Shown here piece by piece: positions 3,585 through 62,313 of a stretch of DNA of 64,000 nucleotides. Position 1 is the stretch's first letter. The number at the start of each line of letters is the position of its first letter. The stretch is taken from the NCBI RefSeq assembly GCF_000015565.1, contig NC_008786.1, forward strand, positions 2,294,001 to 2,358,000, in the 5' to 3' direction. The position numbers and the translations under genes were made by a program. The DNA comes from Verminephrobacter eiseniae EF01-2 (GTDB lineage Bacteria > Pseudomonadota > Gammaproteobacteria > Burkholderiales > Burkholderiaceae_C). The notes under the pieces were generated by a model, which was not told the DNA's origin, ran no database searches, and saw only the letters and a program-made list of their open reading frames with translations.

Positions 3585-4459
3585 CGCGCTGGGCCGCAGG
3601 CTTGGCGGAACTGGCCCCGCATTTCGACGGCTTCGTGCTCGACCAGTTCGGCGTGCTCCATGACGGCCAGGCGCCATACCCCGGCGTTGCCGACGCGCTG
3701 CGCCAACTGCGCGCCCATGCCAAGCGCGTGCTGGTGCTGAGCAACTCCGGCAAGCGCGCCGCGTACAACCGCCAGCGGCTGGCAGGCTTTGGCATCACGC
3801 CCGGGCTGTACGACGACCTCATCAGTTCCGGCGAACTATGCCGGCAGATGCTCGCGCGCCGCGACCGCGCGCCCTGGGCCACGCTGGGCCGGCGCGTGCT
3901 GCTGCTCGACCCCGGGCAGGACCGGCCGCTGATCGACGCGCTGGCGCTCGATGCCGTCGATAGCGTCGAGCAGGCCGACTTCATCCTGCTGGCCAGCCTG
4001 GCCGACGGCATGCAGCCGGCCAGCCTGCAAGCGCTGCTCGACGCGGCCGCAGCGCGCCGCCTGCCGCTGGTCTGCGCCAACCCCGACCGGCAGCGCCTGA
4101 CGCTGCATGGCATAGCCCCCGGCAGTGGCAGCGTGGCCGCGCATTACGAACAAATGGGCGGCATGGTGGTCTGGGTGGGCAAGCCGTATCCGCTGATTTA
4201 CGCCGCCTGCCGCGAGCGGCTGGCCGGTCTCGGCGCCGAGCGCATCTGCGCGCTCGGCGACTCGATCGAGCATGACCTGCTCGGCGGCAGCCGCGCCGGG
4301 CTGGCCACCTGCTTTGTCGCCGGCGGCCTGCATGCGCAGGACTTCGAGCGCGCCGGCGCCGCGAACCGCGCTGCCGAACTGCAACGCCTGCTCGCGCTGC
4401 CCGCTGCCCATGGCGCGCCCGCGCCGGCCTGGGCGCTGCCGCGCCTGCAATGGAGCTAG
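3581..4459 (+). CDS. HAD-superfamily class IIA hydrolase (sugar-phosphatase type)
   Basis: 292 residues with HAD-IIA landmarks. The nucleophile motif DQFGVLHDG has Asp at 21 in place of the usual DxDGT. Motif II is SNSGKR at 54-59, the Lys of GKPYP is at 201, and the acidic motif GDSIEHD starts at 226. This matches the uncharacterised TIGR01459-like HAD-IIA group, expected to dephosphorylate a small phosphorylated metabolite in the cytoplasm. It overlaps the FGGY kinase by 4 bp and ends the operon. Its TAG stop is the CTAG target of the mobile repeat that begins at 4457, so the original C-terminus may have been longer; the last about 20 residues are low in complexity. The substrate is unknown. 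Confidence 0.85.
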   Translation: MTRWAAGLAELAPHFDGFVLDQFGVLHDGQAPYPGVADALRQLRAHAKRVLVLSNSGKRAAYNRQRLAGFGITPGLYDDLISSGELCRQMLARRDRAPWATLGRRVLLLDPGQDRPLIDALALDAVDSVEQADFILLASLADGMQPASLQALLDAAAARRLPLVCANPDRQRLTLHGIAPGSGSVAAHYEQMGGMVVWVGKPYPLIYAACRERLAGLGAERICALGDSIEHDLLGGSRAGLATCFVAGGLHAQDFERAGAANRAAELQRLLALPAAHGAPAPAWALPRLQWS

Positions 4460-4621
4460 TGTCGCGTCACCGATCAGATGTCGTAGGCTGCGCGCAGCCA
4501 TCGGAGCGCAGCGCAAGGCGCATCGCGCAGCCCATACCGAGCTGTATTGGCAAGCGATGCAACGCCGCGATGCGCTTCGATGGCCAGCGCGGACCGACAG
4601 ATGATCGGTGACGCGACACTA
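4457..4621 (+). mobile_element. 165-bp MITE-like repeat, family 1, copy 1
   Basis: The first of seven copies. It is bounded by inverted termini TAGTGTCGCGTCACCGATCA and the complement ending in CGCGACACTA, and carries no open frame of its own. The TA at each end fits a TA target duplication as in IS630/Tc1-mariner elements. It sits at the 3' end of the HAD gene and supplies that gene's TAG stop. The body contains GC-rich inverted repeats such as GGCTGCGCGCAGCC. The stretch 4622-4739 after it holds no gene that I can recognise. Confidence 0.85.
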
Positions 4622-4739
4622 GTGGTAGTCAAGCCCATGGGCGGCTACAACGCATTGCGGGGGCAACTGCCGTTGCGAACATCCGGCTGCAAGCACCACT
4701 TCTTCCCCCAAGCGCACGCCGGCGAGGACGCATCCAGGC

Positions 4740-6257
4740 TCAGTGCTCTTCCTGGGCAGGGCCTCCTTCATGGGACGCAAAGGCCTGCGCGACGATGGCC
4801 TCGATCCGGCTCAGCTCCTTTGCGGAGAGGACATAGGCCACTTCTTTGGCCGTCTTGCGCTGCTCCGGCATTCTGTTGTTGTTCCGGTGGATCCATTGGA
4901 TCAGCAGATTGATCGTCCGGTTCGGCAGGTCGAACTGCTTGTCGATACGCTCATAGGCCAGATCGTAGGCCTGAAGGTACTGCGCCTCATCGACAAGGGA
5001 CTGCTGCAATGCGACACGCGCGCATCGGGTCACGAAGGCCGCGGCATGGGCCCCCGACCAGTGGGCATAGACCATCGGCGTAGAGCGGAAGTCGAAGACG
5101 AAGTCTCCGTCGCCGATGAACTGCACGTCCCACAGCGCACGCGCCGGTGTGCTGAAGCGCTCCAACGCAGCCAGGTACCTCCGCTCCTCTTGCTTCATGG
5201 CCACCGACAGCGGCAGGATGGCCGGGCTGCCCTTCACGTCCGGCAGCGCCCCCTTCATGTGCAGGCAGTGGTGCGCCAGCAGCCGCGAGAGCCGGCCATT
5301 GCCGTCCATGAAGGGGTGGACGAAGACGAAGCCGAAACTCACCAGCGCCGCCTTGATCAGCGGAGGAACGTCGTCCTTGGCGTTCGCCATGCGCATCAGC
5401 CCGTCGATCAAGGGCAGCATGTGCTCCGGCGAAGGTGGAACATAGCGGACGGCCAACGCGCCGCGCCCGCCACGCTGCAGCCAGTTCTGGGTACCGCGCA
5501 AGCCCCTCTCTGCCCGCAGAGGCGAGCTGATGACGGCGTTCTGCAGTCCGACCAGGTAGCCTTCCGTCAGCGGCGCGCGGTCGCGAAGATGCGCCATCGC
5601 CTGCAGAAACGCCTTTTCCTTCTCCGGGCTCGGCACTTCGTTCTCTATGGCATAGGAGTCGCGGGTCTCGCTGAGGTAGGCCCAGTCCATCACCCGGTCC
5701 ATCAGCGGCTCGTTCTCCGGCGCCGTCGCCCATTCGCGCAACGAGCGCAGGATGGACTCGCCCTCCTGCTCGAGCTCGTCATCGCGCCGAACGACTGGAC
5801 AGAACTCGTAGGGCCCGATGCCGTTGAAATTGATCCGGTACTTCTGGCTGCGCTCCCAGACCTGGCCGGTGAAGTACACCTTCGAATCGAAGAAGTCGAC
5901 ATAGTTGCCCGCAGGCCCCGCCAGCGGCAGATCCAGTTCGACGCCATGGACCTTTTCCCATAGGTAGGCCGCGCGGCGCACGTAGGCGCCCGCCGGCGCG
6001 TCGACGATGGCGTCGACGATGTCCTGGGCCGGCAGCAGCCGCAGCGCCTCATGCAGGATTGCCAATTTCACCGACTCGTGCTTCAGCGCGAAGAGCAGGT
6101 GCGGGAGAATGGAGTCGGTGGCGGGCGCGATCGCCTTGGGTATCGCGATCAGGTCGGCCATCTCCTCCACACGGGTCACTGGCTTGATCCGGGCGGGCTT
6201 GTCCAGTTCCGGCATGCGCAACGGGATCTTTGACAGCAAGAATTCGTACCCGACCAT
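4740..6257 (-). CDS. fic: Fic/DOC family protein (AMP-transferase type, self-inhibited)
   Basis: A 505-residue Fic-domain protein. The catalytic loop HPFMDGNGR (314-322) has the complete HPFxxGNGR motif used to transfer AMP, or another nucleotide moiety, onto a target hydroxyl. About 110 residues upstream, SYAIEN (201-206) fits the inhibitory helix motif (S/T)xxxE(G/N), so this is the class with an N-terminal autoinhibitory helix rather than a separate antitoxin. The C-terminal region resembles the winged-helix tail of many stand-alone Fic proteins. It is a single gene on the minus strand, bracketed by two copies of the 165-bp mobile repeat in the same orientation, which suggests acquisition or mobility. 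The target protein is unknown. Confidence 0.9.
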   Translation of the reverse strand: MVGYEFLLSKIPLRMPELDKPARIKPVTRVEEMADLIAIPKAIAPATDSILPHLLFALKHESVKLAILHEALRLLPAQDIVDAIVDAPAGAYVRRAAYLWEKVHGVELDLPLAGPAGNYVDFFDSKVYFTGQVWERSQKYRINFNGIGPYEFCPVVRRDDELEQEGESILRSLREWATAPENEPLMDRVMDWAYLSETRDSYAIENEVPSPEKEKAFLQAMAHLRDRAPLTEGYLVGLQNAVISSPLRAERGLRGTQNWLQRGGRGALAVRYVPPSPEHMLPLIDGLMRMANAKDDVPPLIKAALVSFGFVFVHPFMDGNGRLSRLLAHHCLHMKGALPDVKGSPAILPLSVAMKQEERRYLAALERFSTPARALWDVQFIGDGDFVFDFRSTPMVYAHWSGAHAAAFVTRCARVALQQSLVDEAQYLQAYDLAYERIDKQFDLPNRTINLLIQWIHRNNNRMPEQRKTAKEVAYVLSAKELSRIEAIVAQAFASHEGGPAQEEH

Positions 6258-6384
6258 CGATCACCTCGAAAAATCTGTAGGGAGCCATGTTTTTTTTGTA
6301 TTTTAGGCTTTCCGAAGAGGATTTTTTATATGTCGTCGTTCACTGGCACCAGCAGCGGACGTCCCCGGCGGGAGATGCGACTTC
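6258..6384. promoter_or_regulatory. AT-rich upstream region of the Fic gene
   Basis: Short gene-free stretch upstream of the minus-strand Fic start. It is distinctly AT-richer than its surroundings (for example around 6288-6335) and most likely holds the Fic promoter. I could not assign clear -35 and -10 boxes. Confidence 0.35.
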
Positions 6385-6549
6385 TAGTGTCGTGTCACCG
6401 ATCAGATGTCGCAGGCTGCGCGCAGCCATCGGAGCGCAGCGCAAGGCGCATCGCGCAGCCCATACCGAGCTGTATTGGCCAGCGATGCAACGCCGCGATG
6501 CGCTTCGATGGCCAGCGCAGACCGACAGATGATCGGTGACGCGACACTA
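6385..6549 (+). mobile_element. 165-bp MITE-like repeat, family 1, copy 2
   Basis: Same orientation and near-identical sequence to the copy at 4457, with TA at both ends. With that copy it brackets the Fic gene. It sits between the Fic promoter region and the 3' end of the sugar permease gene. The remaining bases up to 6594 show nothing recognisable. Confidence 0.85.
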
Positions 6550-14449: not shown

Positions 14450-14614
14450 TAGTGTCGCGTCACCGATCATCTGTCGGTCTGCGCTGGCCATCGAAGCGCA
14501 TCGCGGCGTTGCATCGCTTGCCAATACAGCTCGGTATGGGCTGCGCGATGCGCCTTGCGCTGCGCTCCGATGGCTGCGCGCAGCCTACGACATCTGATCG
14601 GTGACGCGACACTA
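14450..14614 (-). mobile_element. 165-bp MITE-like repeat, family 1, copy 3
   Basis: Opposite orientation to the copies at 4457 and 6385. Inverted termini with TA at both ends, inserted in the lactonase gene. It directly abuts the IS630-type transposase remnant, the only possible mobilising enzyme that I see in the window. Confidence 0.88.
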
Positions 14615-14664
14615 GTGGATCATAACGTTTAAATAGATAGTAAATTACCTCCTTGGAGGACACG

Positions 14665-15236
14665 ATGAACTTGACCGAAGCCGAAATCATGGAACTGCGC
14701 CAGCAAGCCAATGGAAGGGCCGTTCGAGCGGATTTGGCGCGTCGTGCGCGTCTGATCTTGCTGCTTGCCGAGGGACTGACCTGGAGCGCCATCAGGGCCA
14801 AGCTCGATTGCAATGACAGCTACATTGCTCTCTGGAGCAAGCGCTTTGCCGCAGACCGTTTGGCAGGCTTGTTTTCTCGCCTGCCGGTCGCCAGCGCTAC
14901 AAGGTCACCGACCGCCTTGAGGCGCGTGTGCTGGCGCGCACGACCAAGCACAAGCCCGCCGATGGTTCCACGCACTGGTCCACGCGCAAGCTCGCTGCCG
15001 AACTTGGTGGCGACATTTCGCACATGATCGTGTCATGGCCCAACCAGGTTGAGCTGTGGTTCGCCAAGATCGAGCGCGACGTGATCGCTCGCGGCGTATT
15101 CACCTCGGTACCCGATCTCAAGAGAAAGCCCATGCGCTACATCCGCAAGTACAACGAGCAAGCCAAGTCCGTGCAGTGGAAGTACTTCGACCCCACTCGG
15201 AGGATTACTCCTTATTCAATCATTACAGACAACTAG
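14665..15236 (+). pseudogene. IS630-family transposase remnant
   Basis: ATG at 14665 after the ribosome site TTGGAGGA. The N-terminal helix-turn-helix region of an IS630 transposase is recognisable (LARRARLILLLAEGLTWSAI, then FAADRLAGLF). A frameshift near 14885 moves the homology to another frame (RQRYKVTDRLEARV, HKPADGSTHWSTRKLA, GDISHM). That runs straight into the C-terminal motif SWPNQVELWFAKIERDVIAR, so roughly the central half carrying the DD residues of the DDE triad is deleted. Ends at TAG 15236. Inactive. Outer ends of the IS could not be defined with confidence; 14615-14664 and the few bases after 15236 probably belong to it. Confidence 0.88.
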
Positions 15237-15238
15237 CC

Positions 15239-16393
15239 ATGCGATTCCTGACAGACCCGCCGGCCGTCCGGCGGCTGGCCCAAGCCTCGCAGCGCCTGGG
15301 CAGCGATCCGCTGCTGATACAGGCAGCAGGCGGCAACAGCTCCATCAAGGAGCAAGACTGCCTGTGGGTCAAAGCCTCCGGGCTGTGGCTGCGCGATGCG
15401 CTGCAGCGGCCGATGTTCGTGCCGGTGTCGCTGTCGCGGGTGCGCGCGCTGGTGGCCGCCGGCGCAGCCGACCCGGTGGGGCCGGCGCTATTGCACGCGC
15501 AAACCGCCGCCGGCCTGCGCCCCTCGATAGAAACCACGCTGCATGCGCTGATGCCGCACCGGGTGGTGCTGCATGTGCATTCGGTCGATGCCATCGCCTG
15601 GGCCGTGCAACCCGGCGCGCAGACCGCGCTGGCCGCGCTGTTGGACGGCATCCGCTGGGGTTGGGTCGACTACCACCGGCCCGGACTGCCGCTCACGCGC
15701 GCGGTGGCGCAACGGCTGGCGCAGCCGCCGATGGATGCGTCGTCGGCACAGCCGCCGGAGGATGGGCTGCCCGTGCCGCCGCCAGTGGATGGGCTGCCGG
15801 CGCAGCGGTCGGTGGATGCGCCGCCGTCGATCGATGTGCTGCTGCTGGGCAACCACGGCCTGGTGGTGGGCGGCGCTTCGGTGCTGCACGCCGAGCAACG
15901 ACTGGCCGAGGTCGCAAGCCGCCTGCGCCGGCCCGTGCGCGCCGCGCCCGCTGCCGATGGCGCCGGCCTGGCGCTCGATGCCGCAGCCACCGGCTGGCGG
16001 CTGCCCGGCAACGCGCGCGGCCATGCGGTGGCGACCGACCCCGTGAACCTGGAGCGCGCCGTGCGCGGCGTGCTCTATCCCGACCATGTGGTGTTCCTCG
16101 GGCACCAGATGAGCGTCGCCCCCGCTGCGCTGGCGCGTGGCGGGCCGGCGCTGAGCGACTGGCTGCGCGCGCAACGCCGCAGCGCGGGGCCGGCACCGCT
16201 GATCGCCGTGCCCGGGCGCGGCGTTCTGCTGCGCGACGACCTGTCCGAAGCCGCGTGCGAAATGCTCACCTGCCTGGCCGATGTGTTGCAGCGCCTGCCG
16301 CCGTCCGGCGCGCCGGTCTACCTGCCGGACGAGGAAGCCCAGGCCCTGGCCCACTGGGAAGCCGAGCAATTTCGCCAGGCGCAGGCGCGCTGA
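15239..16393 (+). CDS. class II aldolase/adducin family protein (RhaD-like)
   Basis: A class II aldolase-type protein of about 384 residues from the ATG at 15239. It has AAGGNSSIK at 29-37, LWVKASG at 42-48, Glu98, HVH at 112-114 and the GNHG histidine at 206. The C-terminal portion includes YPDHVVFLG and LPDEEAQALAHWEAEQFRQ. This resembles the aldolase part of long rhamnulose-1-phosphate aldolase/dehydrogenase proteins. The fold is interrupted at about 161-195 by a Pro/Asp-rich stretch from a degenerate 24-30-bp tandem repeat. It starts 2 bp after the transposase remnant, so its original promoter and upstream partners may have been lost. Its last about 195 bases are duplicated at 18993-19179. 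Confidence 0.8.
   Translation: MRFLTDPPAVRRLAQASQRLGSDPLLIQAAGGNSSIKEQDCLWVKASGLWLRDALQRPMFVPVSLSRVRALVAAGAADPVGPALLHAQTAAGLRPSIETTLHALMPHRVVLHVHSVDAIAWAVQPGAQTALAALLDGIRWGWVDYHRPGLPLTRAVAQRLAQPPMDASSAQPPEDGLPVPPPVDGLPAQRSVDAPPSIDVLLLGNHGLVVGGASVLHAEQRLAEVASRLRRPVRAAPAADGAGLALDAAATGWRLPGNARGHAVATDPVNLERAVRGVLYPDHVVFLGHQMSVAPAALARGGPALSDWLRAQRRSAGPAPLIAVPGRGVLLRDDLSEAACEMLTCLADVLQRLPPSGAPVYLPDEEAQALAHWEAEQFRQAQAR
15728..15830 (+). repeat. degenerate 24-30-bp in-frame tandem repeat inside the aldolase gene
   Basis: About four imperfect units, each with a core like CAGCCGCCGRTGGATG, encode QPPMD/QPPED/PPVDG/SVDAP variants. They form a surface insertion just before the NHG metal-binding strand. 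Frame is kept because unit lengths are multiples of three. Confidence 0.6.
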
Positions 16394-17078
16394 TCCTGCA
16401 TCGGGCCAAGCCCCCCGCCCGCCGGATGCCGGGGTGCCCGAACCCGCCTGCGCAAGCCCATCGGCGCAGCGCATGGCACATCCCCCGGCCGCCGCCGAGG
16501 CCGGTTTCCGCGTGCCGCGCCGGAGCAGTGCGCGCAAATGCCCAGAGCGTGTAGCGGCCCGCTCCGGGCGGCGCCACGGCCTCGCCGGGGGTGGTCCGGC
16601 CATGCCTGCGGGCGGCGCCGGCTTGCTTGCCGGCGCTGCCGCGCCCGGTTTTGGGCGTCCGGTTTTGGCCTTTGCCATCTGATCCGTTCAGCGCTGCGCT
16701 GCTTGGCCGGGCTGCTGCTGCGTCGTTGCTGGCACGTTGGCCCGGCGGCTTTTGCTCGAAGGGTCAGGGTCGAACGGATCGGGCGCTGCCGCTGGCAGAT
16801 CGGGCACTGCCGTTGGCAGTGGTCTGCGCTGACCGGATTTCTGACGAATGGTGGTAGTTTTCCTAATGGTTGGATATCAAATTGATACAAATTGGTGACA
16901 CAGAAAATAGTCTTACGGACTACGTAACATCTACACTTTGGACATTTCCAGTTGTCAAAGATGTCACGCCGCTGCCGAGCAGAAAAGGGACATCACCGAC
17001 ACGCTTGCGCTGTGGTGCCGACCACGGCGGATGACCGGAACCCCATCAATCCCCTCATCCTGACGAAAGGAAAACACC
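16394..17078 (+). promoter_or_regulatory. long leader region upstream of Ig-like protein A
   Basis: A 685-bp stretch without a gene. The first part is GC-rich and degenerate, matching 19180-19735 in unit B. Two 13-bp palindromes (CTGCCGCTGGCAG at 16786 and CTGCCGTTGGCAG at 16807) lie 21 bp apart, about two helical turns. From about 16860 the DNA turns AT-rich (TTGATACAAATT near 16882) and probably carries the promoter. A hairpin at 17007-17030 and the ribosome site GAAAGGAA precede the ATG at 17079. Confidence 0.5.
17007..17030 (+). promoter_or_regulatory. conserved leader hairpin, copy A
   Basis: Inverted repeat GCGCTGTGGT-GCCG-ACCACGGCGG, 10-bp arms with a 4-base loop, about 50 bases before the start codon. 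The matching site in unit B (19874-19897) is a perfect 10-bp hairpin in otherwise diverged sequence. It may act in mRNA stability or as a protein site; role unknown. Confidence 0.5.
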
Positions 17079-18476
17079 ATGCCTGCCAGCACGACTACCG
17101 ACACAACAGCACCCAGTGTCACGATCGAAATCGACAAAGAGCGCCTCACCGCTGGCGAAACCGCCACCGTCACCATCACCTTTAGCGAGATTGTCACCGG
17201 CTTCAATACCAGCGCCACGAGCGGTTCCGTCATACTCGCCGACGCCAACGGCACTCTGAGCAACCTGACGCAGGACGCAACCGACGGCAGAATCTGGAGA
17301 GCCACCTTCACGCCCACGGTCAACCTGTCCAACACCCGCAGCCAACTTCGGCTGAAGTTGGACGGCATCACAGATAGCCGCGGCAACGCCGCCAGTGGTC
17401 TGAGCGCAGCCCGCAGCTACATCGTCGACACCGCAGCCTTTGTCATCAACAAAGCCACGGTGGAGGACAAGCAGTTGATCTTGCGCTACAGCGATGAAAC
17501 CACGCTGGACCCGGACCAGGCACATAACGCGCCCAACGATGCCTTTGTGGTGATGGTCGATGGTGTGCGCAACGATGTCGCCGGCGTGGCCGTGGATGCA
17601 GCGGCCAAGACCATCACGCTGACGCTGGTCAACGCCGTGCGCGGGGGCCAGCGGGTGACCGTCGCCTACAACGACCCCAGCACCGGCAACGACCAGCAAG
17701 CGGTGCAGGAAGCCGGCACCGGCAGCACCAGCGGCAAAGACGCGGCCAGTTTCGCGGCCATGCCGGTGGTCAACCTCCTCGGCGAGCCTCCACCCGAGCC
17801 TCCGCCCGAGACGGAGTCCAGCAGCAAAGGCGCCACGACGAATACGTCGGACTCCGGTCGCAACAGCGGCGCGTCGAATACGTCGGACTTCGACAGCGAC
17901 GGCCTGTCCAACGCCCAGGAGGACCTGGCCCCCGGCCTGCTGCGCTCTGATGGCTCGGCCGGCATGGCTGGCGACGGCAACGGCGACGGCATCAAAGACA
18001 GCCAGCAGATCGCCGTCGCTTCGACCCGCGACCAGACCCTGGTGGCCGGCAGCCAGGACGGCAAGCTGATCCCCGGCAGCAACGCGCGCATTACCGAACT
18101 GGTGCGCAGCGATGCCCCGACCAAGCTGCCCAAGGGCATGGAGATGCCGCTCGGCCTGACCTCATTCAAGGTATCGCTGGCCGAAGGCCGCAGCACCGAG
18201 AGCTTCAGCCTGTACGTAGATTCGGCGCTCGGCGCCAACGGCTACTGGGTCAAGAACAGCGCCGGCACCTGGGTGAACCTGGCCAGCGAACCCTACGGCG
18301 GCAAGGTGAGCAGCGAAGGCGGGCGCACGCGGCTGGACTTTCAGATCCAGGACGGCGGCCAGTACGATGCCGACGGCCAGGTCAACGGCAGCATCAGCGC
18401 GCCCGGCGCCGTGGCGAAGATGCCGCTGTCCATCATCGGGCAGACGGCGCCCCAGGGCGATTCGCTTTGGTTCTGA
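17079..18476 (+). CDS. Ig-like / SWM-repeat / choice-of-anchor surface protein A
   Basis: A 465-residue modular extracellular-type protein. Residues about 10-125 are a bacterial Ig-like domain (ERLTAGETATVTITFSEIV). 126-235 is an SWM/SwmB-type repeat (LILRYSDETTLDPDQAHN, VTVAYNDPSTGND). A Pro/Glu/Ser linker and a thrombospondin type 3-like calcium loop (DFDSDGLSNAQED) follow. From about 320 there is a C-terminal choice-of-anchor-type domain (STESFSLYVDS, RTRLDFQIQDGGQYDADG). There is no N-terminal signal peptide, and the protein ends in a short aromatic tail (SLWF), which suggests type I secretion; no secretion genes are in the window. A paralogue lies 1.5 kb downstream. Function unknown; adhesion or matrix roles are typical. 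Confidence 0.8.
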   Translation: MPASTTTDTTAPSVTIEIDKERLTAGETATVTITFSEIVTGFNTSATSGSVILADANGTLSNLTQDATDGRIWRATFTPTVNLSNTRSQLRLKLDGITDSRGNAASGLSAARSYIVDTAAFVINKATVEDKQLILRYSDETTLDPDQAHNAPNDAFVVMVDGVRNDVAGVAVDAAAKTITLTLVNAVRGGQRVTVAYNDPSTGNDQQAVQEAGTGSTSGKDAASFAAMPVVNLLGEPPPEPPPETESSSKGATTNTSDSGRNSGASNTSDFDSDGLSNAQEDLAPGLLRSDGSAGMAGDGNGDGIKDSQQIAVASTRDQTLVAGSQDGKLIPGSNARITELVRSDAPTKLPKGMEMPLGLTSFKVSLAEGRSTESFSLYVDSALGANGYWVKNSAGTWVNLASEPYGGKVSSEGGRTRLDFQIQDGGQYDADGQVNGSISAPGAVAKMPLSIIGQTAPQGDSLWF

Positions 18477-18763: not shown

Positions 18764-18927
18764 CAGTGTCGCGCCACCGATCATCTGTCGGTCTGCGCTG
18801 GCCATCGAAGCGCAGCGCGGCGTTGCATCGCTTGCCAATACGCTCGGTATGGGCCGCGTGCTGCGCCTCGCGCTGTGCTCCGATGGCTGCGCGCAGGCTA
18901 CGACATCTGACCGGCGATGCGACATTG
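18764..18927 (-). mobile_element. MITE-like repeat, family 1, copy 4 (diverged)
   Basis: Most diverged of the seven copies: termini CAGTGTCGCGCCACC and GCGATGCGACATT instead of the consensus. Inserted in the tail of duplication unit A. The corresponding place in unit B (about 22570-22582) lacks it. The tail continues to 18992 and then joins unit B. Confidence 0.75.
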
Positions 18928-18992: not shown

Positions 18993-19179
18993 GATCGCCG
19001 TGCCCGGGCGCGGCGTTCTGCTGCGCGACGAGCCGTCCGAAGCCGCGTGCGAGATGCTCACCTGCCTGGCCGATGTGTTGCAGCGCCTGCCGCTGTCCGG
19101 CGCGCCGGTCTGCCTGCCAGACGAGCAAGCCCAGGCCCACCGGGAAGCCGGGCAATTTCGCCAGGCGCAGCCGCGCTGA
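18993..19179 (+). pseudogene. duplicated 3' fragment of the class II aldolase gene
   Basis: About 62 codons matching the C-terminus of the aldolase ending at 16393. Both copies carry GRGVLLRD, EAACEMLTCLADVLQRLP and the final FRQAQ. The fragment ends in TGA (19177-19179). It lacks a start and the catalytic core, so it is not functional; it marks the left boundary of the duplication. Confidence 0.85.
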
Positions 19180-19335
19180 CCCTGCATCGGGCCAAGCCCC
19201 CGCCACCGGATGCCGGCGCCCAAGCCTGAACCCGAACCCGCGTGCGCAAGCCCGTCCGCGCAGCGCACACCACCTCCCCACCTAGGCCGCTGCCCTGCCG
19301 GTTTCCGCGTGCCGCGCGGACCGGCGCACGCAAAT

Positions 19336-19383
19336 GCCAAGAAGCCAAGAAGCCAAGAGGCCAAGAGGCCAAGAGGCCAAGAG
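19336..19383 (+). repeat. 8-bp tandem repeat GCCAAGAR x6
   Basis: Six perfect-length 8-bp units (two GCCAAGAA then four GCCAAGAG). At the matching position in duplication unit A (about 16535) only a single related unit is seen, so the array expanded after the duplication. Confidence 0.85.
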
Positions 19384-19873
19384 CGTGCTGCGGCCCGTTC
19401 CGGTCGGCGCCACGGCCTCGCCGCAGGTGACCCGGCCATGCCCGCAGACGGCGCCGGCTTGCTTGCGGGCGCTACCGCGTCCGGTTTTGGGCGTCCGGTT
19501 TTGGCTTTTGTCATCTGATCCGTTCAGCGGTGCGCTGGGCCGGGCTGCTGCTGCGTCGTTGCTGGCGCGTTGGCCCGGCGGCTTCTGCTCAGAGGTCAGG
19601 GTCGAACGGATCGGGTGCTGGCAGACCGGGCGCTGCCGCTGGCAGATCGGGTAACTGCCGCTGGCAGTGGCCTGCGCTGGCCGGTCTGCTGCCGGGCCGG
19701 TGCGGGCCGGGCGGGGGGTGTTTTTTCCCCTGGGTCGATGGAGATCAAATTGATGTAACATGTGATCCAAATTGCTGTATTTTGGAATTCGTTTTCGCTA
19801 ATCTTTGGCCGTTCCTGATGGTCAAAGCCGTTGCATTGCAACCGGGCAGAAAAGGGACAGCACCGACACGCTT

Positions 19874-19897
19874 GCGCCGTGGTGCCGACCACGGCGC
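19874..19897 (+). promoter_or_regulatory. conserved leader hairpin, copy B
   Basis: Perfect 10-bp inverted repeat GCGCCGTGGT / ACCACGGCGC with a GCCG loop, about 55 bases before the start of Ig-like protein B. The same element precedes protein A with one changed arm base on each side of the stem. Confidence 0.55.
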
Positions 19898-19951
19898 ATG
19901 ACCGGAACCCGATCGATCTCCTCATCCTGACTCCTGACGAAAGAGGGCACC

Positions 19952-22400
19952 ATGGCCTTGACTGACCGCATCAGACTGATTGACGACCGCACGCTGACAA
20001 TCGGCGAAACAATGGAAATCCGCTTCACATTCGACATTTCCGTCGATGACAAGCGCGAAAACGCTGTGGGGGTAGAGAGATATCAGGCCAATGGCCACAT
20101 CAGGGACGATTGGCGGTACACGCGCAGTGAAGGCCAGTGGTGTGCCACCTTCATCCCCGACCGGGAAACAGAGGTCACCGGCAACCGAATCCGCTACAAA
20201 GTCACCACCGCCTTTACTGACAGCAACGGGCGCCGTTATGAGGCCAAGGAGGTGCTCAGCGACACCTTCGACATTGACACCAAGCGGCCCACTCTCGTGG
20301 GCACCCCCACGATCGATAACCCCAACTTAACCAGCGCCAACCAAGTAACCACCATCACCTTTGCCTTCCACGAGCGGATAAATCAGACCACCTTCACAAC
20401 GGATGACCTGACGATAGCGCCGGGCAGGGGCACGCTGGAGAACCTGCGCACCACCGACAACGGCATGACCTGGCGGGTCGATCTGAGGGCCCCGGTGAAC
20501 CTGGCGCCAAACACCGACGCGAAGGGCCTGCAGATCGGGGTCAACATGTCCGGCCTCAGCGATATCGCGGGCAACGCGGGCGCGTTCGGCGACGCAATCC
20601 ACCTCGTCACCTACAACATCGACACCAAGCCGCCCGATTCCACCATTGTCGTTACACCCAACCCCGTCACGAAAAACAACCGCCAGGTCACCGTCACCAT
20701 CACCTTCGACGAGGCAGTCACCGGCTTCACGGTAGACAACATCGATTTCAGCAACGCCAATGTCACGCCCTATGGCAGCAACCGGATAGGAGCGCTGAAC
20801 AGCTCAGCCGACGGCCGCTGCGGGCATCGAGGATGCCACCAACACCATCAGCCTGCGCAACCTCGATACCATCCGTGACGCCACAGGGCACGCCGCAACG
20901 GGCAACCACACCAGCGGCAACTACGAGATCGACACCCAGGAGGCCTATCTCACCAGCGCCATGTTTGACAAACAGCGCCTCACCGCTGGCGAAACCGCCA
21001 CCGTCACCCTCACCTTCAACGAGAGCGTCAGTAACGTCACCCAAGGCACCTTTCAAATCCCCAACGGTTCTGTGAGCGACCCGACGCCGGTTGCCGGCTC
21101 CAACAGCCGCATCTGGACAGCCACCTTCACCCCCACGGCCAACCTGTCGCGCACCAGCAGCTCGATCAGAATAAATCTGGACGGCATCGGAGATCGCGTC
21201 GGCAACATCAGCACGGGTGCCGTGTCATTCAACAACTCCATCGTCATCGACACCAAGGTCTTTGCCGTCAACGACGCCACGGTGAACGGCAGGCAATTGG
21301 TATTGCGCTACAGCGATGAAACCACGCTGGACCCGGAGCAGGCACATAACGCGCCCAACGATGCCTTTGTGGTGCTGGTCGGTGGCGTGCGCAACGCTGT
21401 CACCGGCGTGGTCGTGGATGTAGCGTCCAAGACCGTCACGCTGACGCTGGCCAACGCCGTGTTCCGGGACCAGCCGGTGACCGTCGCCTACAACGACCCC
21501 AGCACCGGCGACGACCTGCAAGCGGTGCAGGAGGCCGGCAGCGGCCACGACGCGGCCAGTTTCGCAGCCAGACCGGTGACCAACCTCAGCCCGGCTCCGG
21601 CGGAAACGGGGACGGGAACTGGCACGGGGACAGGGACTGGTACGGGCACGGGTACTGGGACGGAGACGGGTACGGGCACGGGCACGGAGACTGGCACGGG
21701 TACGGGTACGGGTACGGGCACGGGCACGGGTACGGGCACGAACAGAACGAACCCCGACCGTCGTAAATCACCCAAGTACTTTGACGACGATGCGTCGACG
21801 CGGGACTCCGACCACGACAGTGTGCTCAACGTCCAGGAGGAACTGGCCCCCGGTCTGCTGCGCCCCGATGGTTCGGCCGGCCGGGACGGCGACGGCAACG
21901 GCGACGATGTCCAGGACAGCCAGCAGATCGCCATCGCTTCAACCCGCGACCAGACCCTGGTGGCCGGCAGCCGGGACGGCAAACTGATCCCCGACAGCAA
22001 CGCGCGCATCAGCGAAATGGCGTTCAACGAACCCCCCGCCAGTCAGCCCAAGGGCATGGAGACGCCGCTCGGCCTGACGCAATTCAAGGTCGGCCTGACC
22101 GAAGGCCGCAGCACCGAGAGCTTCAGCCTGTACGTAGACACGGCGCTTGGCGTCAACGGCTTCTGGGCCAAGGACGGCACCGGCACCTGGGTGAACCTGG
22201 CCAGCGAACCCTACGGCGGCAAGGTGGCCAGCGAAGGCGGGCGCACGCGGCTGGACTTTCAGATCGAGGACGGCGGCCAGTACGATGCCGACGGACTGGC
22301 CAATGGCAGCATCACCGCCTTTGGCGCCGCAGCGAAGATGCCGCTGTCCATCGTCGGGCAGGCGCAGCCGCAGGCCGAGTCCAATGGCTTTTGGTACTGA
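19952..22400 (+). pseudogene. Ig-like / SWM-repeat / choice-of-anchor surface protein B, frameshifted
   Basis: The paralogue of protein A with more Ig-like domains. The first frame (19952-20878) encodes about three Ig-like domains: a diverged first one, then TLVGTPTIDNPNLTS..., then VTVTITFDEAVTGF. Near 20805-20820 homology jumps frame between SSADGR and AGIEDATNTISLRNL, with roughly 10-15 residues missing, consistent with a small deletion. The second frame continues through the fourth Ig domain (KQRLTAGETATVTLTF), an SWM repeat (LVLRYSDETTLDPEQ), a Thr-Gly tract, a calcium loop (STRDSDHDSVLNVQEE) and the choice-of-anchor domain, ending GFWY. A GTG or ATG re-start in the second frame (ATG 20961) could still make a 479-residue product similar in layout to protein A. 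Confidence 0.8.
21606..21740 (+). repeat. hexanucleotide ACGGGN tandem array encoding a Thr-Gly tract
   Basis: 45 codons, almost all alternating Thr and Gly (ACN GGN), with Glu in place of Gly at a few positions. It lies between the SWM repeat and the calcium loop, where protein A has only a short Pro/Glu/Ser linker. Gain or loss of 6-bp units keeps frame, so the array would change linker length rather than switch the gene off. Confidence 0.9.
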
Positions 22401-40881: not shown

Positions 40882-41046
40882 TAGTGTCGCGTCACCGATC
40901 ATCTGTCGGTCTGCGCTGGCCATCGAAGCGCATCGCGGCGTTGCATCGCTTGCCAATACAGATCGGTATGGGCTGCGCGATGCGCCTTGCGCTGCGCTCC
41001 GATGGCTGCGCGCAGCCTACGACATCTGATCCGTGACGCGACACTA
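40882..41046 (-). mobile_element. 165-bp MITE-like repeat, family 1, copy 5
   Basis: Inverted orientation, like the copy at 14450. Inserted at GCTAG at the 3' end of the LysE-like remnant and 44 bp upstream of the CoA-transferase start, so it may influence that gene's transcription. Confidence 0.88.
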
Positions 41047-45194: not shown

Positions 45195-45358
45195 TGGTGT
45201 CGCGTCACCGATCAGATGTCGTAGGCTGCGCGCAGCCATCGGAGCGCAGCGCAAGGCGCATCGCGCAGCCAATACTGAGCGTATTGGCAAGCGATGCAAC
45301 GCCGCGATGCGCTTCGATGGCCAGCGCAGACCGACAGATGATCGGTGACGCGACACCA
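45195..45358 (+). mobile_element. MITE-like repeat, family 1, copy 6
   Basis: Same orientation as the copy at 4457, with ends TGGTGTCGCG and CGCGACACCA in place of TAGTGT/ACACTA. The matching change at both ends suggests either insertion at a variant target or that TG/CA lies inside the element. Located between the MBL hydrolase gene and rpoD. Confidence 0.83.
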
Positions 45359-47746: not shown

Positions 47747-48820
47747 TCAGTCCGGCAATGTGGCGGCATCCGTATGGATGCAGCGCAGGCGACGATTCGG
47801 TGCGATTTCGACCATCGGCGGCGGCGCGGCGTGGCAGGCCGCGCGCGCGAGCGCGCAGCGCTCGGCAAAGGCGCAGCCGGGCGGCAGCGCGCACAGGTCG
47901 GGCGGCGCGCCGGCGATGGTCGCAAGCCGCGTGCCGCGTGCCAGCGCGCCGTGCGCGCTGCTCTTGAGCAGTGCGATGGTGTATGGATGGCGCGGCGCGC
48001 CGAGCAGTTCGCGGACCGTGCCTTCCTCGACGATGCGGCCCGCATACATCACGGCGATGCGGTCGGCGATCTCGACGGCGGCGCCGATGTCGTGCGTGAC
48101 GAAGATCACCGACAGGCCGAGGTCGCGCTGCAACTGGCGCAGCAGCAACAAAATCTGGATTTGCACCGTCGCGTCGAGCGCGGTGGTCGGCTCGTCGGCC
48201 AGCAGCAACTGCGGCTGGCAGGCCAGCGCGAGCGCAATCATCGCGCGCTGGCGCATGCCGCCGGACAGCTCATGCGGGTAGGCGGCCAGGCGCCGCTCGG
48301 GACTTGGAATCTGCACGCGCTCGAACAGCGCGAGCGCGCGTTGCCGGGCCTCGGCCCGGGTGACGGATTCGTGGCGGCGGATCGATTCGACGATCTGCGC
48401 GCCGATCGGATAGACCGGGTCGAGCGCCAGCAGCGGCTCCTGGAAGATCATCGACGCGACCTTGCCGCGAAAGTCGGCCAATTCGCGCTGCGACAGCGCG
48501 AGCACGGCGCGACCGGCCACCTCCACCAGGCCGTCGATGCGCGTGCGCCGCTCCGGGTGCAGGCGCAGCAAGGTGCGCATGGTCACGCTCTTGCCCGAGC
48601 CCGACTCGCCGATCAGCGCGAGCACCTCGCCGCGCTGCACTTGCAGGCTCACGCCGCTGATGGCGCGCACGGGTTTGCCGCCGCCGCTGCCGCTGAAGGT
48701 GACGCCAAGGTCGCGCAGCCGGACCATGGGTTCGGCTGAAGCGCCGTTTGCTGCGCTCGCTGGAGTACCTTCGCCTTCGGCTGCGGTATGAACGCCCTCG
48801 GGCGGCCGGGCGGCGTTCAT
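47747..48820 (-). CDS. peptide-type ABC transporter ATP-binding protein (OppD/DppD)
   Basis: 357 residues. Walker A GESGSGKSVTM, signature LSGGMRQRAMIAL, Walker B LLLADEPTTALDAT, and the C-terminal Cys cluster (CALPPGCAFAERC) of the oligopeptide-type ATPases. The first 31 residues (MNAARPPEGVHTAAEGEGTP...) come from a family 3 repeat, and the conserved protein begins at MVRLRDLGVTF, for which ATG 48727 is an alternative start. It overlaps the OppF stop in ATGA. Last gene of a five-gene importer operon. Confidence 0.9.
   Translation of the reverse strand: MNAARPPEGVHTAAEGEGTPASAANGASAEPMVRLRDLGVTFSGSGGGKPVRAISGVSLQVQRGEVLALIGESGSGKSVTMRTLLRLHPERRTRIDGLVEVAGRAVLALSQRELADFRGKVASMIFQEPLLALDPVYPIGAQIVESIRRHESVTRAEARQRALALFERVQIPSPERRLAAYPHELSGGMRQRAMIALALACQPQLLLADEPTTALDATVQIQILLLLRQLQRDLGLSVIFVTHDIGAAVEIADRIAVMYAGRIVEEGTVRELLGAPRHPYTIALLKSSAHGALARGTRLATIAGAPPDLCALPPGCAFAERCALARAACHAAPPPMVEIAPNRRLRCIHTDAATLPD
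48760..48820 (-). repeat. family 3 (AARPPEG) hairpin repeat at the OppD start
   Basis: On the minus strand it begins ATGAACGCCGCCCGGCCGCC, overlapping the upstream stop. The outer stem is GAACGCC (48790-48796) with GGCGTTC (48812-48818). The copies at 55467 have GAGCGCC/GGCGCTC, so both arms changed together and pairing is kept. Confidence 0.75.
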
Positions 48821-49857
48821 GCGGCCGGCCTTTGCCGGCGCTGTTGCGCCATCGGGTGCCCGCTGTCCGGTTCATGGACCAGGCAACTTGCCGCATGTTG
48901 CGCCCCGGCGGCGATGGGCTTGGGCGCGCGCCGGGCGCACACCGGCGCGGCAAGCGCGCAGCGCGGGTGAAAGCGGCAGCCCGTGGGCGGGTCGATCGGA
49001 TTCGGCGGATCGCCCGAGAGCGCTGCTTTCTCGCTGCGCTGCTCCGGGTCCAGCGACGGTATCGACGACAGCAGCGCGCGCGTGTACGGATGCGCCGGCG
49101 CTGCGTACAGCGCATCGACCGGGCCGATCTCGACCACCTGGCCCAGGTACATCACCATGACGCGGTCGCTCATGTAGCGCACCACGTTCAGGTCGTGGCT
49201 GATGAACAGATAGGTCAGGCCGAACTCCGTTTTCAGATCCAGCAGCAGGTTGATGACCTGCGCCTGGACCGATCTGTCCAGCGCCGACACCGCCTCGTCG
49301 AGGATGACCATGCGCGGCTGCAGCGCCAGCGCCCGCGCAATGTTCACGCGCTGGCGCTGGCCGCCCGACAACTCGTGCGGATAACGCTCGGCCAAGCGCT
49401 GCGGCGGCAGCCCCACGCGCGCGAGCAGGTCGCGCGCGTTCGAGCGCGCCGCGCGCCGGGGCATGCCGTGCACCTGCGGGCCGAAGGCCACCGTGTCCTC
49501 GATGCTCAGGCGCGGGTTCAGCGAGGCATAGCTGTCCTGGAACACCATCTGCACCTGGCGGCGGAATTCCTTGAGCGGCAGGTCGCGGCCGCCGATCGCG
49601 CGGCCGTCGAACACCATCTGGCCGCGCGTCGGTTTCAGCAACTGCATCAGCAGGCGCGCGGTCGTGGACTTGCCGCAGCCCGATTCGCCGACCACGCCGA
49701 GCGTCTCGCCCTTCATGACCTGAAAGTCCACGCCGTCCACGGCGCGCACCACGGTGCCGGCGCCGAACGCGGTTTTCTTGAGCGGAAAATGCTTGACCAT
49801 GCCGCTGATGGTCAGCAGCGGTTGCGCCGGTCCGCCGATATCGATGGGTTGCTCCAT
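48817..49857 (-). CDS. peptide-type ABC transporter ATP-binding protein (OppF/DppF)
   Basis: 346 residues. Walker A GESGCGKSTTARLL, QMVFQDSYASLNPR, signature LSGGQRQRVNIARAL, Walker B VILDEAVSALDRS (Ala-Val instead of the common Pro-Val/Thr) and the C-terminal Cys-containing GCRFHPRCALA. It pairs with OppD as the ATPase heterodimer. It follows the permease gene by 15 bp. Confidence 0.92.
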   Translation of the reverse strand: MEQPIDIGGPAQPLLTISGMVKHFPLKKTAFGAGTVVRAVDGVDFQVMKGETLGVVGESGCGKSTTARLLMQLLKPTRGQMVFDGRAIGGRDLPLKEFRRQVQMVFQDSYASLNPRLSIEDTVAFGPQVHGMPRRAARSNARDLLARVGLPPQRLAERYPHELSGGQRQRVNIARALALQPRMVILDEAVSALDRSVQAQVINLLLDLKTEFGLTYLFISHDLNVVRYMSDRVMVMYLGQVVEIGPVDALYAAPAHPYTRALLSSIPSLDPEQRSEKAALSGDPPNPIDPPTGCRFHPRCALAAPVCARRAPKPIAAGAQHAASCLVHEPDSGHPMAQQRRQRPAA

Positions 49858-54247: not shown

Positions 54248-55468
54248 ATGATCATCACCAGCTTGCTCGACACCGATCTGTACAAGTTCACCATGATGCA
54301 GGTGGTGCTGCACCAGTTTCCGGGCGCGCAGGTCGAATACCGCTTCAAGTGCCGCAACCCGGGCGTGCAACTGGCGCCATACGTTGCCGAGATCCGGGGC
54401 GAGATCCGGTCGCTGTGCAGCCTGCAGTTTCAGGACGCCGAGCTCGACTACCTGCGCTCGATGCGCTTCATCAAGAGCGATTTCGTCGATTTCCTCGGTC
54501 TGTTCAGGCTCAACGAGAAATACATCAGCGTCGCCCCCCGGCCTGGCGGCGAGATCGATATCTGCATTCGCGGGCCGTGGCTGCACACCATCTTGTTCGA
54601 GATTCCGGTGCTGGCCATCGTCAACGAGGTGTACTTTCGCAACACGCAAAAGGTGCCCGATTTTCCCGAAGGGCGCAGACGGCTCGATGCCAAGATCGCG
54701 CTGTTGCAGGCCGAGGGCCTGGAGGAGTTGAAGATCGCCGATTACGGCACGCGCCGGCGCTTTAGCCGCGCCTGGCATGAGGAGGTCTTGCGCGTGCTGG
54801 TGGCCCGCCTGGGCACGGGCGACCAGTGTGCCGAAGCGCCCGCTGGCCCGGGGCAGTTTGCCGGCACCAGCAATGTGCTGTATGCGATGAAACTGGGCGT
54901 GACGCCGCTGGGCACGATGGCGCATGAGTATCTGCAAGCCTGCCAGGCCCTGGGCCCGCGGTTGCGCGACAGCCAGGTGTTCGGCTTCGAGATATGGGCC
55001 AGGGAATACCGGGGGGACCTGGGCATCGCGCTGTCCGATGTGTACGGCATGAGTGCGTTCCTGCGCGACTTCGACCTGTACTTCTGCAAGCTCTTCGATG
55101 GCGCGCGCCAGGACAGCGGCGACCCGTTTGCCTGGGGCGAGCGCCTGCTGGCCCATTACCGCAAGCTGCGCGTGGACCCGCAGAGCAAGACGCTGATCTT
55201 CAGCGATGCGCTGACGGTGACGCGCACCATCGAGTTGTACCGGCAGTTCCGGGGCCGCTGCCAGTTGGCCTTCGGCATCGGCACCCACCTGACCAACGAC
55301 CTGGGCAGCCCGCCTGCGCATGAGCCGCTGCAAGTGGTCATCAAGATGACGCGCTGCAACGGGCAGCCGGTGGCCAAACTGGCCGACTCGCCGGGCAAGG
55401 GCATGTGCGACGACGAGAAGTACCTGGCCTATCTGCGCCAGGTGTTTGACATCCCGGCGCAGGCATGA
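54248..55468 (+). CDS. pncB: nicotinate phosphoribosyltransferase
   Basis: 406 residues. Starts [18 protein letters not shown], with [54 protein letters not shown] (split here as landmarks GTSNVLYA and GTMAHE), RQDSGDPF and FSDALT. It makes nicotinate mononucleotide from nicotinate and PRPP for NAD salvage. Its TGA stop lies in ATGA, where a family 3 repeat begins. Confidence 0.96.
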
Positions 55469-55588
55469 GCGCCGCCCGGCCGCCCGAAGGCGCTCATACC
55501 GCAGCCGAAGGCGAAGGCACCCCAGTGCGCGCCGCCCGGCCGCCCGAAGGCGCTCATACCGCAGCCGGAGGCGCAGGTGCTCCAGTGC
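55465..55588 (+). repeat. family 3 (AARPPEG) hairpin repeat, two tandem 60-bp units
   Basis: Two 60-bp units in tandem (from about 55469 and 55529), beginning ATGAGCGCCGCCCGGCCGCC over the pncB stop. Hairpin arms are GAGCGCC at 55467 and GGCGCTC at 55489. The units encode AARPPEGAHTAAEGEGTPVR and a close variant in a 74-codon frame ending at 55689; I doubt that frame is a real gene. The rest of the gap to 55705 shows nothing else. Confidence 0.8.
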
Positions 55589-55705
55589 GCGCTGCATGTG
55601 TCAATGGGTGGCCCGGCGGAGTGCGCCGTTGCCGACCCGGCGATGGCTGCGCCCTCTGCACCCTTTTGCACCCCTTTGCACCCCTCTGATGGAGACCAGG
55701 AAACC

Positions 55706-61256: not shown

Positions 61257-61360
61257 ATCGTATCGATCGCGCAGATCGGGCCGCCCTGGCACAGTGCACA
61301 ATCTGCGCGAGCCCCCGCAACCGTTCATGACCGTCAAGCACGAGGAACAAGGAGCAACAC

Positions 61361-62152
61361 ATGGCGCACACCCTGCACGCTTTGGCCGGATCGGGCCGAT
61401 CAGCCCCCCGCCCGGAACCATCGGCATCGAACCTGGACAGCGACGCCGTGGCGCAGACCAGAATCGAGCTGGCCGCCTGCTTTCAGGCCGCCGCGCGCCA
61501 CGGCTTCGACGAGGGCATCTGCAACCACTTCTCGGCGCTGCTGCCCGGGCGCGACGACCTGTTTCTGGTCAACCCCTACGGCTACGCATTCAGCGAAATC
61601 ACGGCCGAGCGGCTGCTGATCTGCGACCTCGACGGCCATGTCCTGGCCGGACAGGGACAGCCCGAAGCCACGGCCTTTTTCATCCATGCCAGGCTGCACC
61701 GGGCGCGCCCTGCGCTGCGTGCCGCCTTCCATACCCACATGCCGCACGCCACGGCGCTGAGCATGCTGGAAGGCGCGCCACTGCTCTGGGCCGGGCAAAC
61801 CGCATTGAAGTTCTATGGCCGTATTGCGGTCGACGAGGACTACAACGGCCTGGCGCTCGATGCGGCCGAAGGCGACCGCATCGCCGCAGCACTGGGAACG
61901 GCGGATGTGCTGTTCCTGAAGAACCACGGCGTGATGGTCACCGGCCCCGACATTGCCCAAGCCTGGGACGACCTGTATTACCTGGAGCGCGCCGCCCAAG
62001 TGCAGCTCAAGGCCATGGCCAGCGGCCGGGCGCTCAAACCCGTCGCCCCGGACGTGGCGCAGCGCACCTGCGAGCAAATGCGCGCCGGCGACGCACAAAG
62101 CGCACGCGCGCATCTGGACAGCCTGCTGCGGACATTGCGCGGGCACAGCTAG
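61361..62152 (+). CDS. class II aldolase/adducin family protein
   Basis: 263 residues. FDEGICNHFSALLPG at 49-63, Glu102 in QPEATAFF, HTH at 124-126 and KNHG (His189) supply the family's metal site. It belongs to the adducin-like branch often called decarboxylase/aldolase or epimerase. Its TAG stop is part of the TA target at the edge of a family 1 repeat, so the last residues may not be original. An MFS transporter follows after the repeat, suggesting a small sugar-acid locus. Substrate unknown. Confidence 0.85.
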   Translation: MAHTLHALAGSGRSAPRPEPSASNLDSDAVAQTRIELAACFQAAARHGFDEGICNHFSALLPGRDDLFLVNPYGYAFSEITAERLLICDLDGHVLAGQGQPEATAFFIHARLHRARPALRAAFHTHMPHATALSMLEGAPLLWAGQTALKFYGRIAVDEDYNGLALDAAEGDRIAAALGTADVLFLKNHGVMVTGPDIAQAWDDLYYLERAAQVQLKAMASGRALKPVAPDVAQRTCEQMRAGDAQSARAHLDSLLRTLRGHS

Positions 62153-62313
62153 TGTCGCGTCACCGGTCATCTGTCGGTCTGCGCTGGCCGTCGAAGCGCA
62201 TCGCGGCGTTGCATCGCTTGCCAATACGCTCGGTATTGGCTGCGCGATGCGCCTTGCGCTGCGCTCCGATGGCTGCGCGCAGCCTGCGACATCTGACCGG
62301 TGACGCGACACTA
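62150..62313 (-). mobile_element. MITE-like repeat, family 1, copy 7
   Basis: Inverted orientation, termini TAGTGTCGCGTCACC and GGTGACGCGACACTA. Supplies the TAG stop of the class II aldolase gene. 62314-62461 downstream has no gene and probably holds the promoter of the next transporter. Confidence 0.87.

What the first reader, a model, noticed from the sequence alone, without database searches (positions are those of the whole stretch)
4457..62313. A 165-bp MITE-like family in seven copies, with TA targets and intact inverted ends
Copies at 4457, 6385, 14450, 18764, 40882, 45195 and 62150 share about 20-bp inverted termini, an unchanged length of 164-165 bp and TA (often CTAG) at both ends, in both orientations. 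None encodes a protein. The near-identity of five copies suggests recent movement. TA targets point to an IS630/Tc1-type transposase as the mover, and an IS630 remnant abuts one copy.
Basis: partly seen in the sequence, partly recalled or inferred. Interest (0 to 1): 0.7.

Follow-up and report, generated by a model that had tools for sequence, protein, structure and literature searches.

The report
CTAG-targeting MITE that inserts inside proteins
A 160-letter jumping DNA hairpin is present in several hundred near-identical copies in one bacterial genome, probably that of an earthworm symbiont, and can sit inside genes without breaking their reading frame, a habit best known from Rickettsia.

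Summary
In detail: seven copies lie where stated. They belong to a family of roughly 350-370 copies, about 1% of a 5.6-Mb genome. Contig lengths (recalled) and a review suggest Verminephrobacter eiseniae EF01-2 and its repeat VeiPR1; probable, not proven.

The element is a non-autonomous transposon of 160/161 bp plus a duplicated TA, mostly in CTAG, which is 18-fold rarer here than base composition predicts. No IS with matching ends was found: several IS630 types and an IS427-like IS share the CTAG target but have other termini. An IS630 mover is plausible, not shown.

One is in dapF, the only copy above the cut-off, absent from 20 of 20 relatives. Ten flanks end on the TAG of the boundary. 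This resembles Rickettsia palindromic elements. (2) Its ~56-nt hairpin core occurs in 40 of 200 genomes of the order, in repeats with other ends where examined.

The parts
4459..4619 (-). copy 1, 161 bp; CTA/TAG flanks; its left TAG (4457-4459) is the stop codon of ORF 3581-4459 (HAD-type hydrolase)
6387..6547 (-). copy 2, 161 bp; CTA/TAC flanks
14452..14612 (+). copy 3, 161 bp; CTAG both ends; one of five places identical over 165 bp among the 40 candidates scored
14612..15236 (+). internally deleted IS630 (group C) that shares the CTAG with copy 3
   Evidence: blastn 97.2% and 94.6% to L046; for the ends of intact members
18766..18925 (+). copy 4, 160 bp, decayed flanks (CCA/TGG)
40884..41044 (+). 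copy 5, 161 bp; CTAG both ends
45197..45356 (-). copy 6, 160 bp; CTG/CAG flanks; lies where synteny with relatives breaks
62152..62311 (+). copy 7, 160 bp; CTAG both ends; its left TAG (62150-62152) is the stop codon of ORF 61361-62152 (class II aldolase)
14503..14565 (+). conserved hairpin core (GGCGTTGC..CCAATA-loop-TATTGG..GCGCCTTGC); also at 4506-4568, 6434-6496, 18817-18878, 40935-40997, 45244-45305 and 62203-62264

Best explanation
A non-autonomous DDE-type DNA transposon (MITE), very probably the repeat called VeiPR1 in Verminephrobacter eiseniae. A transposase supplied in trans, most likely of the IS630/Tc1 type, cuts it out at its inverted ends and pastes it into TA, mostly inside CTAG, duplicating the TA. 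Because the element begins with G and ends with C, each insertion recreates CTAG at both ends, so new copies and ISs land end to end. The common 160-bp form plus the 2-bp duplication adds 162 bp (54 codons) that contain no stop on either strand when CTA is read as a codon, so a copy landing in that phase adds a 54-residue peptide and leaves the gene's frame whole; a copy landing on C|TAG keeps the gene's stop. Shown: copy number, ends, open frames, in-frame positions, absence of the insert from dapF of relatives. Inferred: the mover, cut-and-paste, that the enlarged proteins work.
For: Copy number: 312/315 end matches, control 1/1; 56 copies (52 full length) in an 855,194-base sample, 49 in 791,194 without the window; 108 copies (97 full) in 1,650,194 bases. 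Mean pairwise identity 96.6%, 23 of 93 copies identical to another. Target: TA at both ends in 57 of 97, CTAG at both ends in 49 of 97, TA at one end at least in 81 of 97; CTAG occurs 150 times in 855 kb against 2726 expected from base composition. Three copies end CTAG/CTAC and three CTAG/CTAA: the outer base varies, the inner G or C stays. Tandem pairs: 4 among 97; copies abut IS630 B and C and the IS427-like IS. Frame: 62 of 97 units are 162 bp; of 14 copies with clearly coding flanks on one strand, 11 (in 10 genes) are 162 bp, in phase CTA|G, without stop, frame kept; P = 7.8e-6 against 0.213 expected, 2.9e-5 counted by gene. Examples: DapF, SDR split at its NNAG motif, isochorismatase, solute-binding and TctC proteins, PKS/NRPS; a PD-(D/E)XK nuclease carries two in tandem. 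dapF has one copy above the cut-off; the gap between its two domains is 286 nt against 118-124 nt in 20 of 20 relatives. 10 of 36 coding flanks that read towards a copy stop at its boundary TAG.
Against: No autonomous partner was found: none among the IS ends read, and in 29% of the genome only three solitary ends. A 4-bp CTAG duplication (IS5 type) is not excluded: one copy has GTAC at both ends with its own terminal bases changed to match (L319), 162 bp is the unit in both models, and three repeats with the same core in another genus (G078) have CTAG outside a G-starting end on both sides. TA decay is biased to the element-proximal base (32 changes against 10, counted), which I cannot explain. 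3 of the 14 gene copies do not fit: L084 (170 bp, one stop), L309 (163 bp, frame lost), L093 (162 bp and phase CTA|G, but the far flank reads in another frame). Most copies (80 of 96) do not have coding sequence on both sides by my score. The review gives VeiPR1 as 2.3% of the genome, I find 1.07%. Translation of the inserted peptides was not tested. Another review says that in-frame fusions with intragenic MITEs are not unusual, RPEs being the extreme case (passages).
Confidence: 0.7

Rival explanations
1. The mover is an IS5/IS427-type transposase that duplicates 4 bp (CTAG), the element proper being TGTCGCG...CGCGACA.
For: The genome's own IS427-like IS (836-bp spacing; six near-identical copies) sits in CTAG. 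One copy of the element has GTAC on both sides (L319). Repeats with the same core in other genomes show 3-bp TNA duplications, as recalled for part of the IS5 group: the same TNA on both sides in 13 of 27 loci where both ends were found (4 of 7 in G223, 2 of 5 in G078, 0 of 5 in G217, 7 of 10 same-genus loci; L226, L229 and L238 left out as no fitting pair), and CTAG on both sides in 3 of 5 in G078.
Against: Of eight copies with TA at both ends but not CTAG twice, six differ in the outer base on one side only (three CTAC, three CTAA), as expected for a 2-bp duplication. The IS427-like IS has other ends (GGGCGTGTTAAC).
Confidence: 0.33
2. Genes that carry a copy are dead; the in-frame pattern only reflects that 162-bp copies are commonest and that such genes stay recognisable longer.
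For: Some insertions cut conserved motifs (SDR NNAG, ketoacyl synthase), and three of 14 do not fit the in-frame pattern. The copies were chosen for coding signal on both sides, so that signal is no independent evidence.
Against: Phase alone (1 of 3 expected) gives P = 7e-4 for 11 of 14, 1.6e-3 by gene. dapF is the only copy above the cut-off and is needed for peptidoglycan (recalled); both of its halves align with solved DapF around the insert.
Confidence: 0.25
3. A single-strand hairpin element moved by a Y1/RAYT transposase (REPIN-like).
For: Strong hairpin (z = -10.5 as DNA); a hairpin core in many genomes; copy 1 holds GTAG followed by the palindrome GGCTGCGCGCAGCC, though copy 7 has no GTAG.
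Against: Inverted ends with TA at both sides in 57 of 97 copies and in both orientations are the mark of DDE elements. RAYT genes were not searched for.
Confidence: 0.04

Closest known systems
VeiPR1, palindromic repeat of Verminephrobacter eiseniae (thesis Pinel 2009, not seen; cited in PMC3975124, passages seen)
Rickettsia palindromic elements (RPE; passages of review PMC10969869)
   Same: About 150 bp, multicopy, in frame inside unrelated genes, adding about 50 residues (length inferred).
   Different: Here the ends, target and duplication of a transposon are clear; one family with hundreds of copies; open on both strands; a GC-rich genome; most copies are not inside recognisable coding sequence.
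IS630/Tc1-type MITEs (mechanism of ISY100, PMC2170065, abstract and passages seen)
   Same: TA duplication; CTAG preference (title of Tenzen and Ohtsubo 1991 seen in its reference list).
   Different: No IS630 with matching ends found.
BRE, beta-proteobacterial repeat element (PMC3110155, section 14 read)
   Same: Short repeat of several betaproteobacteria, some copies inside coding sequences.
   Different: About 90 bp, often tandem; one reported in V. eiseniae; its sequence is not in the section read, so identity with the core could not be tested.

Membership tests
MITE | short, no transposase gene, terminal inverted repeats, multicopy | tested here: met
MITE | target-site duplication | tested here: met
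   TA at both ends in 57 of 97; 2 versus 4 bp not settled
IS630-derived MITE | ends match an IS630 in the genome or elsewhere | tested here: not met
   the 18 bases TAGTGTCGCGTCACCGAT in genome contigs only in one Nocardiopsis contig (not followed), none in viral contigs; fragments L055-L057 not read
IS630-type mover | TA target, preferentially CTAG | tested here: met
   shared by the IS427-like IS, so not diagnostic
Rickettsia palindromic element (as a type of behaviour) | in-frame insertion into unrelated genes | tested here: met
   11 of 14 copies in coding sequence
Rickettsia palindromic element | sequence homology to an RPE family | not tested
   no RPE sequence was compared
VeiPR1 | sequence identity to the thesis definition | not testable with these tools
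   name found in one held paper, passages without sequence
VeiPR1 | 2.3% of the genome | tested here: inconclusive
   1.07%; about twice that if both strands of the palindrome were counted (inference)
REPIN/RAYT | short GTAG-footed hairpins with a Y1 transposase | tested here: inconclusive
   GTAG + palindrome in copy 1, no GTAG in copy 7; RAYT genes not searched

The most novel reading that the evidence does not exclude
The ~56-nt hairpin core is a functional module that repeats of different transposase systems carry. It recurs with compensatory changes in 40 of 200 genomes of the order (23 family labels, the window's own included), and where the ends were examined (three genomes outside the genus, and same-genus loci) it sits in elements with other inverted ends (GAGCCTGTTCAA, GGGCTCGTTAATG) and other duplications (TNA, CTAG), so that something about the core, not the ends, makes a repeat succeed. 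In V. eiseniae such a repeat also became a both-strand-open insert that proteins tolerate.
Probability: 0.3. Interest if true: 0.78.

Novelty: new variant of a known kind. Interest (0 to 1): 0.6.

Why it matters
In-frame invasion of proteins by a mobile palindrome at high frequency has been described as a feature of Rickettsia (review passages and the title of Ogata 2002 in its reference list). A GC-rich genome of the Burkholderiales (by name recalled), with clear transposon ends and target and with a dapF that carries the insert and has no second copy above the cut-off, would give a tractable case for asking how mobile DNA becomes protein and whether such elements are shaped to be tolerated. 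The hairpin core shared by differently ended repeats makes it testable what, besides the ends, helps non-autonomous elements spread.

Tried and rejected
Rfam: no family at gathering score in the window; low-threshold matches to one copy are mostly miRNA hairpins far below their gathering scores, taken as chance. Plasmid and phage collections: no match to the element. End plus subterminal pattern in genome contigs: none; 18-bp end: one Nocardiopsis contig, not followed; viral contigs: none. The solitary end at L104:19119 had no match in plasmids or E. coli genomes. Empty sites by DNA for the 40884 and 45197 copies and for L030 failed: in the listed matches the relatives are too distant or rearranged there. 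A first codon model, trained on long open frames of either strand, called at least one known gene on the wrong strand and was replaced. In one search the script read 9 of 20 relatives in a wrong frame or strand, so the DapF alignment shows 11; the domain spacing covers all 20. One search includes 60 stretches chosen for long open frames and is biased; the frame statistics use only, whose extra 40 stretches were chosen for IS density. No shuffled control was run for the covariance search. An attempt to confirm the plasmid by similarity found only shared transposon pieces.

Changed after the one check of this report: counts for (21, not 22, same-genus genomes), the solitary ends (three, not one), the GTAG statement, the wording on the core's ends, and the odds of the best explanation (0.72 to 0.70) and of the IS5-type rival (0.30 to 0.33), because CTAG flanks in G078 had been left out.
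Full report
1. The observation. Five of seven have TA at both ends; two have decayed flanks. The 18-bp end GTGTCGCGTCACCGATCA occurs 312 and 315 times on the two strands of the genome at up to two mismatches, against 1 and 1 for the pattern read backwards.

2. Size and age of the family. In a sample of 855,194 bases (the window, the 31-kb plasmid and 38 spaced chromosome stretches) there are 56 copies, 52 full length, 1.07% of the bases, none of them on the plasmid; this scales to about 367 copies, or 347 without the window, which was chosen for its copies. In 1,650,194 bases (40 more stretches chosen for IS density, 1 kb counted twice) there are 108 copies, 97 full length. Three of the four incomplete copies of the first sample are cut by the end of a stretch. 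Mean pairwise identity of 93 copies is 96.6% and 23 are identical to another. By 18-mer counts with the copies masked, no other dispersed repeat in the sample comes near; the next is a 60-bp minisatellite.

3. Host and name. The contigs are 5,566,749 and 31,194 bases, which I recall as Verminephrobacter eiseniae EF01-2 and its plasmid. A review (PMC3975124, passages seen) says that about 2.3% of its genome is one palindromic repeat, VeiPR1, citing a thesis that I have not seen. It is the only held paper with that name. The identity is probable; the percentage does not agree.

4. Target and ends. In 97 full copies TA is at both ends in 57, CTAG at both ends in 49, TA at one end or more in 81. 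CTAG occurs 150 times in the first sample against 2726 expected from base composition; 67 of the 104 copy ends there are CTAG. Three copies end CTAG/CTAC and three CTAG/CTAA, which fits a 2-bp TA duplication with a terminal G of the element; one copy with GTAC on both sides fits a 4-bp duplication better. Copies stand in tandem (4 pairs among 97) and abut IS630 and IS427-like elements, sharing the CTAG. In the window, copy 3 shares its CTAG with an internally deleted IS630 at 14612-15236.

5. The mover. Genome-wide searches gave 27 places with the IS630 transposase domain (26 over the cut-off) and 7 with DUF4096. The ends that could be read belong to five IS630 types and one IS427-like type; none matches the element. 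Four of the five IS630 types and the IS427-like type use CTAG; group A lies mostly beside TTA or other TA sites. Ends of fragments L055-L057 and L123 were not read. Among CTAG-delimited inverted pairs of 200-3500 bp (at least 13 of 18 bases, pairs between two copies left out) in 1.65 Mb there are 13, none with these ends. Three solitary ends were seen outside copies: L104:19119 (first 12 bases identical, CTAG; seen again in the overlapping L304), L328:3026 (CTAG, between ribosomal-protein and pheS genes by reading) and L303:1632, where the first 14 bases run straight into a stretch that also lies inside the transposase gene of the IS630 at L054. Any of them may be a remnant of the partner or of a copy. 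An IS630-type mover is my first choice, an IS5/IS427 type the rival.

6. Copies inside proteins. The 160-bp form plus TA is 162 bp; read with CTA as a codon it has no stop in 31 (one strand) and 30 (other strand) of 49 copies examined. A search with the peptide scored 150 of 756 candidate places, 147 without stop. In the 1.65 Mb, 96 of 97 full copies had full flanks: both flanks clearly coding on one strand with the frame kept in 12, not kept in 2, on opposite strands in 2, one coding flank in 28, none in 52. Of the 14 on one strand, 11 (in 10 genes, two of them in one NRPS gene) are 162 bp, in phase CTA|G, without stop. With 62 of 97 copies of that length and one phase in three, 21% would be expected: P = 7.8e-6, by gene 2.9e-5, by phase alone 7e-4. 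Both peptide directions occur (7 and 4 of 11).

7. Examples. L095: DapF of 348 residues; solved DapF chains align to residues 4-136 and 215-344, the insert lies in between, and both cysteine motifs can be read. The gene has one copy above the family cut-off (a third, weak match is below it); its domain gap is 286 nt against 118-124 nt in 20 of 20 same-genus genomes, and the 11 relatives that my script read in frame lack the insert. L101: a PD-(D/E)XK nuclease of 992 residues with two tandem copies in frame, not counted in the 14. L106: an SDR whose ..GGLHI / VNNAG.. stretch is split. Also isochorismatase, a family 3 solute-binding protein, a TctC protein, a biotin carboxylase-type protein, ketoacyl synthases, an NRPS and a DDE_Tnp_1 transposase.

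8. Copies on stop codons. Of 192 flanks, 36 read towards a copy with a clear coding signal: 13 run on into it, 10 stop exactly at the TAG of the boundary (one of them reads TAA), 13 stop earlier. Two of the ten are in the window (4459, 62152); both proteins match their families nearly to the end. C|TAG is thus a harmless landing place and CTA|G a tolerated one. That this arises by selection against other phases is an inference.

9. The core. Copies of the element, mostly by bases 54-109, match repeats in 21 of 35 other same-genus genomes and 1 of 24 further genomes of the order. An alignment of 19 cores gives a hairpin with 16 pairs, 7 of them with changes on both sides. A covariance model from it finds 40 of 200 genomes of the order at E up to 1e-5, the window's own included, 28 of 109 genera, 23 family labels by my count of that table. 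No control was run for this search. In three of these genomes (G078, G217, G223) the core lies in elements of mostly 266 bp with other ends, apparently with a second, inverted core-like hairpin. Counting these and same-genus loci, 13 of 27 loci with both ends found have the same TNA triplet on both sides, 3 have CTAG on both sides, and G217 shows no TNA match in 5. A full-length relative of the present element, 74-77% identical, exists once in G034, and one 91% identical to that in G245 (at most 17 candidates scored per genome).

10. Verdict. The window holds copies of a real and recently active MITE, probably already named. In the papers that I could search (listings and a few passages only) I found no statement that it inserts in frame into proteins as the palindromes of Rickettsia do, nor that its core is shared by differently ended repeats across the order. 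One review notes that in-frame fusions with intragenic MITEs are not unusual in themselves.

Noticed in passing
window 48749-48822, 55463-55596; L105:3889: A 60-bp minisatellite (GCCGCCCGGCCGCCCGAAGGCGCTCATACC...) recurs in several places and in tandem; the next most abundant repeat by 18-mer counts.
   Followed up: no
window 14612-15236: IS630 with a ~480-bp internal deletion and both ends kept: a second non-autonomous CTAG element.
   Followed up: partly
window 45197 copy and flanks: Sequence left and right of the copy maps to different places in relatives, a rearrangement point at a repeat.
   Followed up: no
ends of 97 copies, 1.65-Mb sample: The TA of the duplication decays mainly to TG/CA at the base next to the element (32 against 10, counted); cause unknown, possibly a repair bias on CTAG.
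   Followed up: partly
855-kb sample of G000: CTAG is about 18-fold rarer than base composition predicts, and up to 67 of the 150 present are ends of this element, ends shared by tandem copies counted twice.
   Followed up: partly
L042:1380-3438: IS630 group B, a copy of the element and IS630 group C stand end to end, sharing CTAG.
   Followed up: yes
L303:1620-1790: Fourteen bases of the element's end are fused to a stretch found inside the IS630 transposase gene of L054.
   Followed up: partly
window 4459 and others: GTAG followed by the palindrome GGCTGCGCGCAGCC in one arm of copy 1, REP-like; absent as GTAG from copy 7.
   Followed up: partly
window 16201-18179 and 18993-22097: A duplicated block around an Ig-like/SWM-repeat gene (17079-18473), with a short-period tandem tract at 21589-21752.
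   Followed up: no
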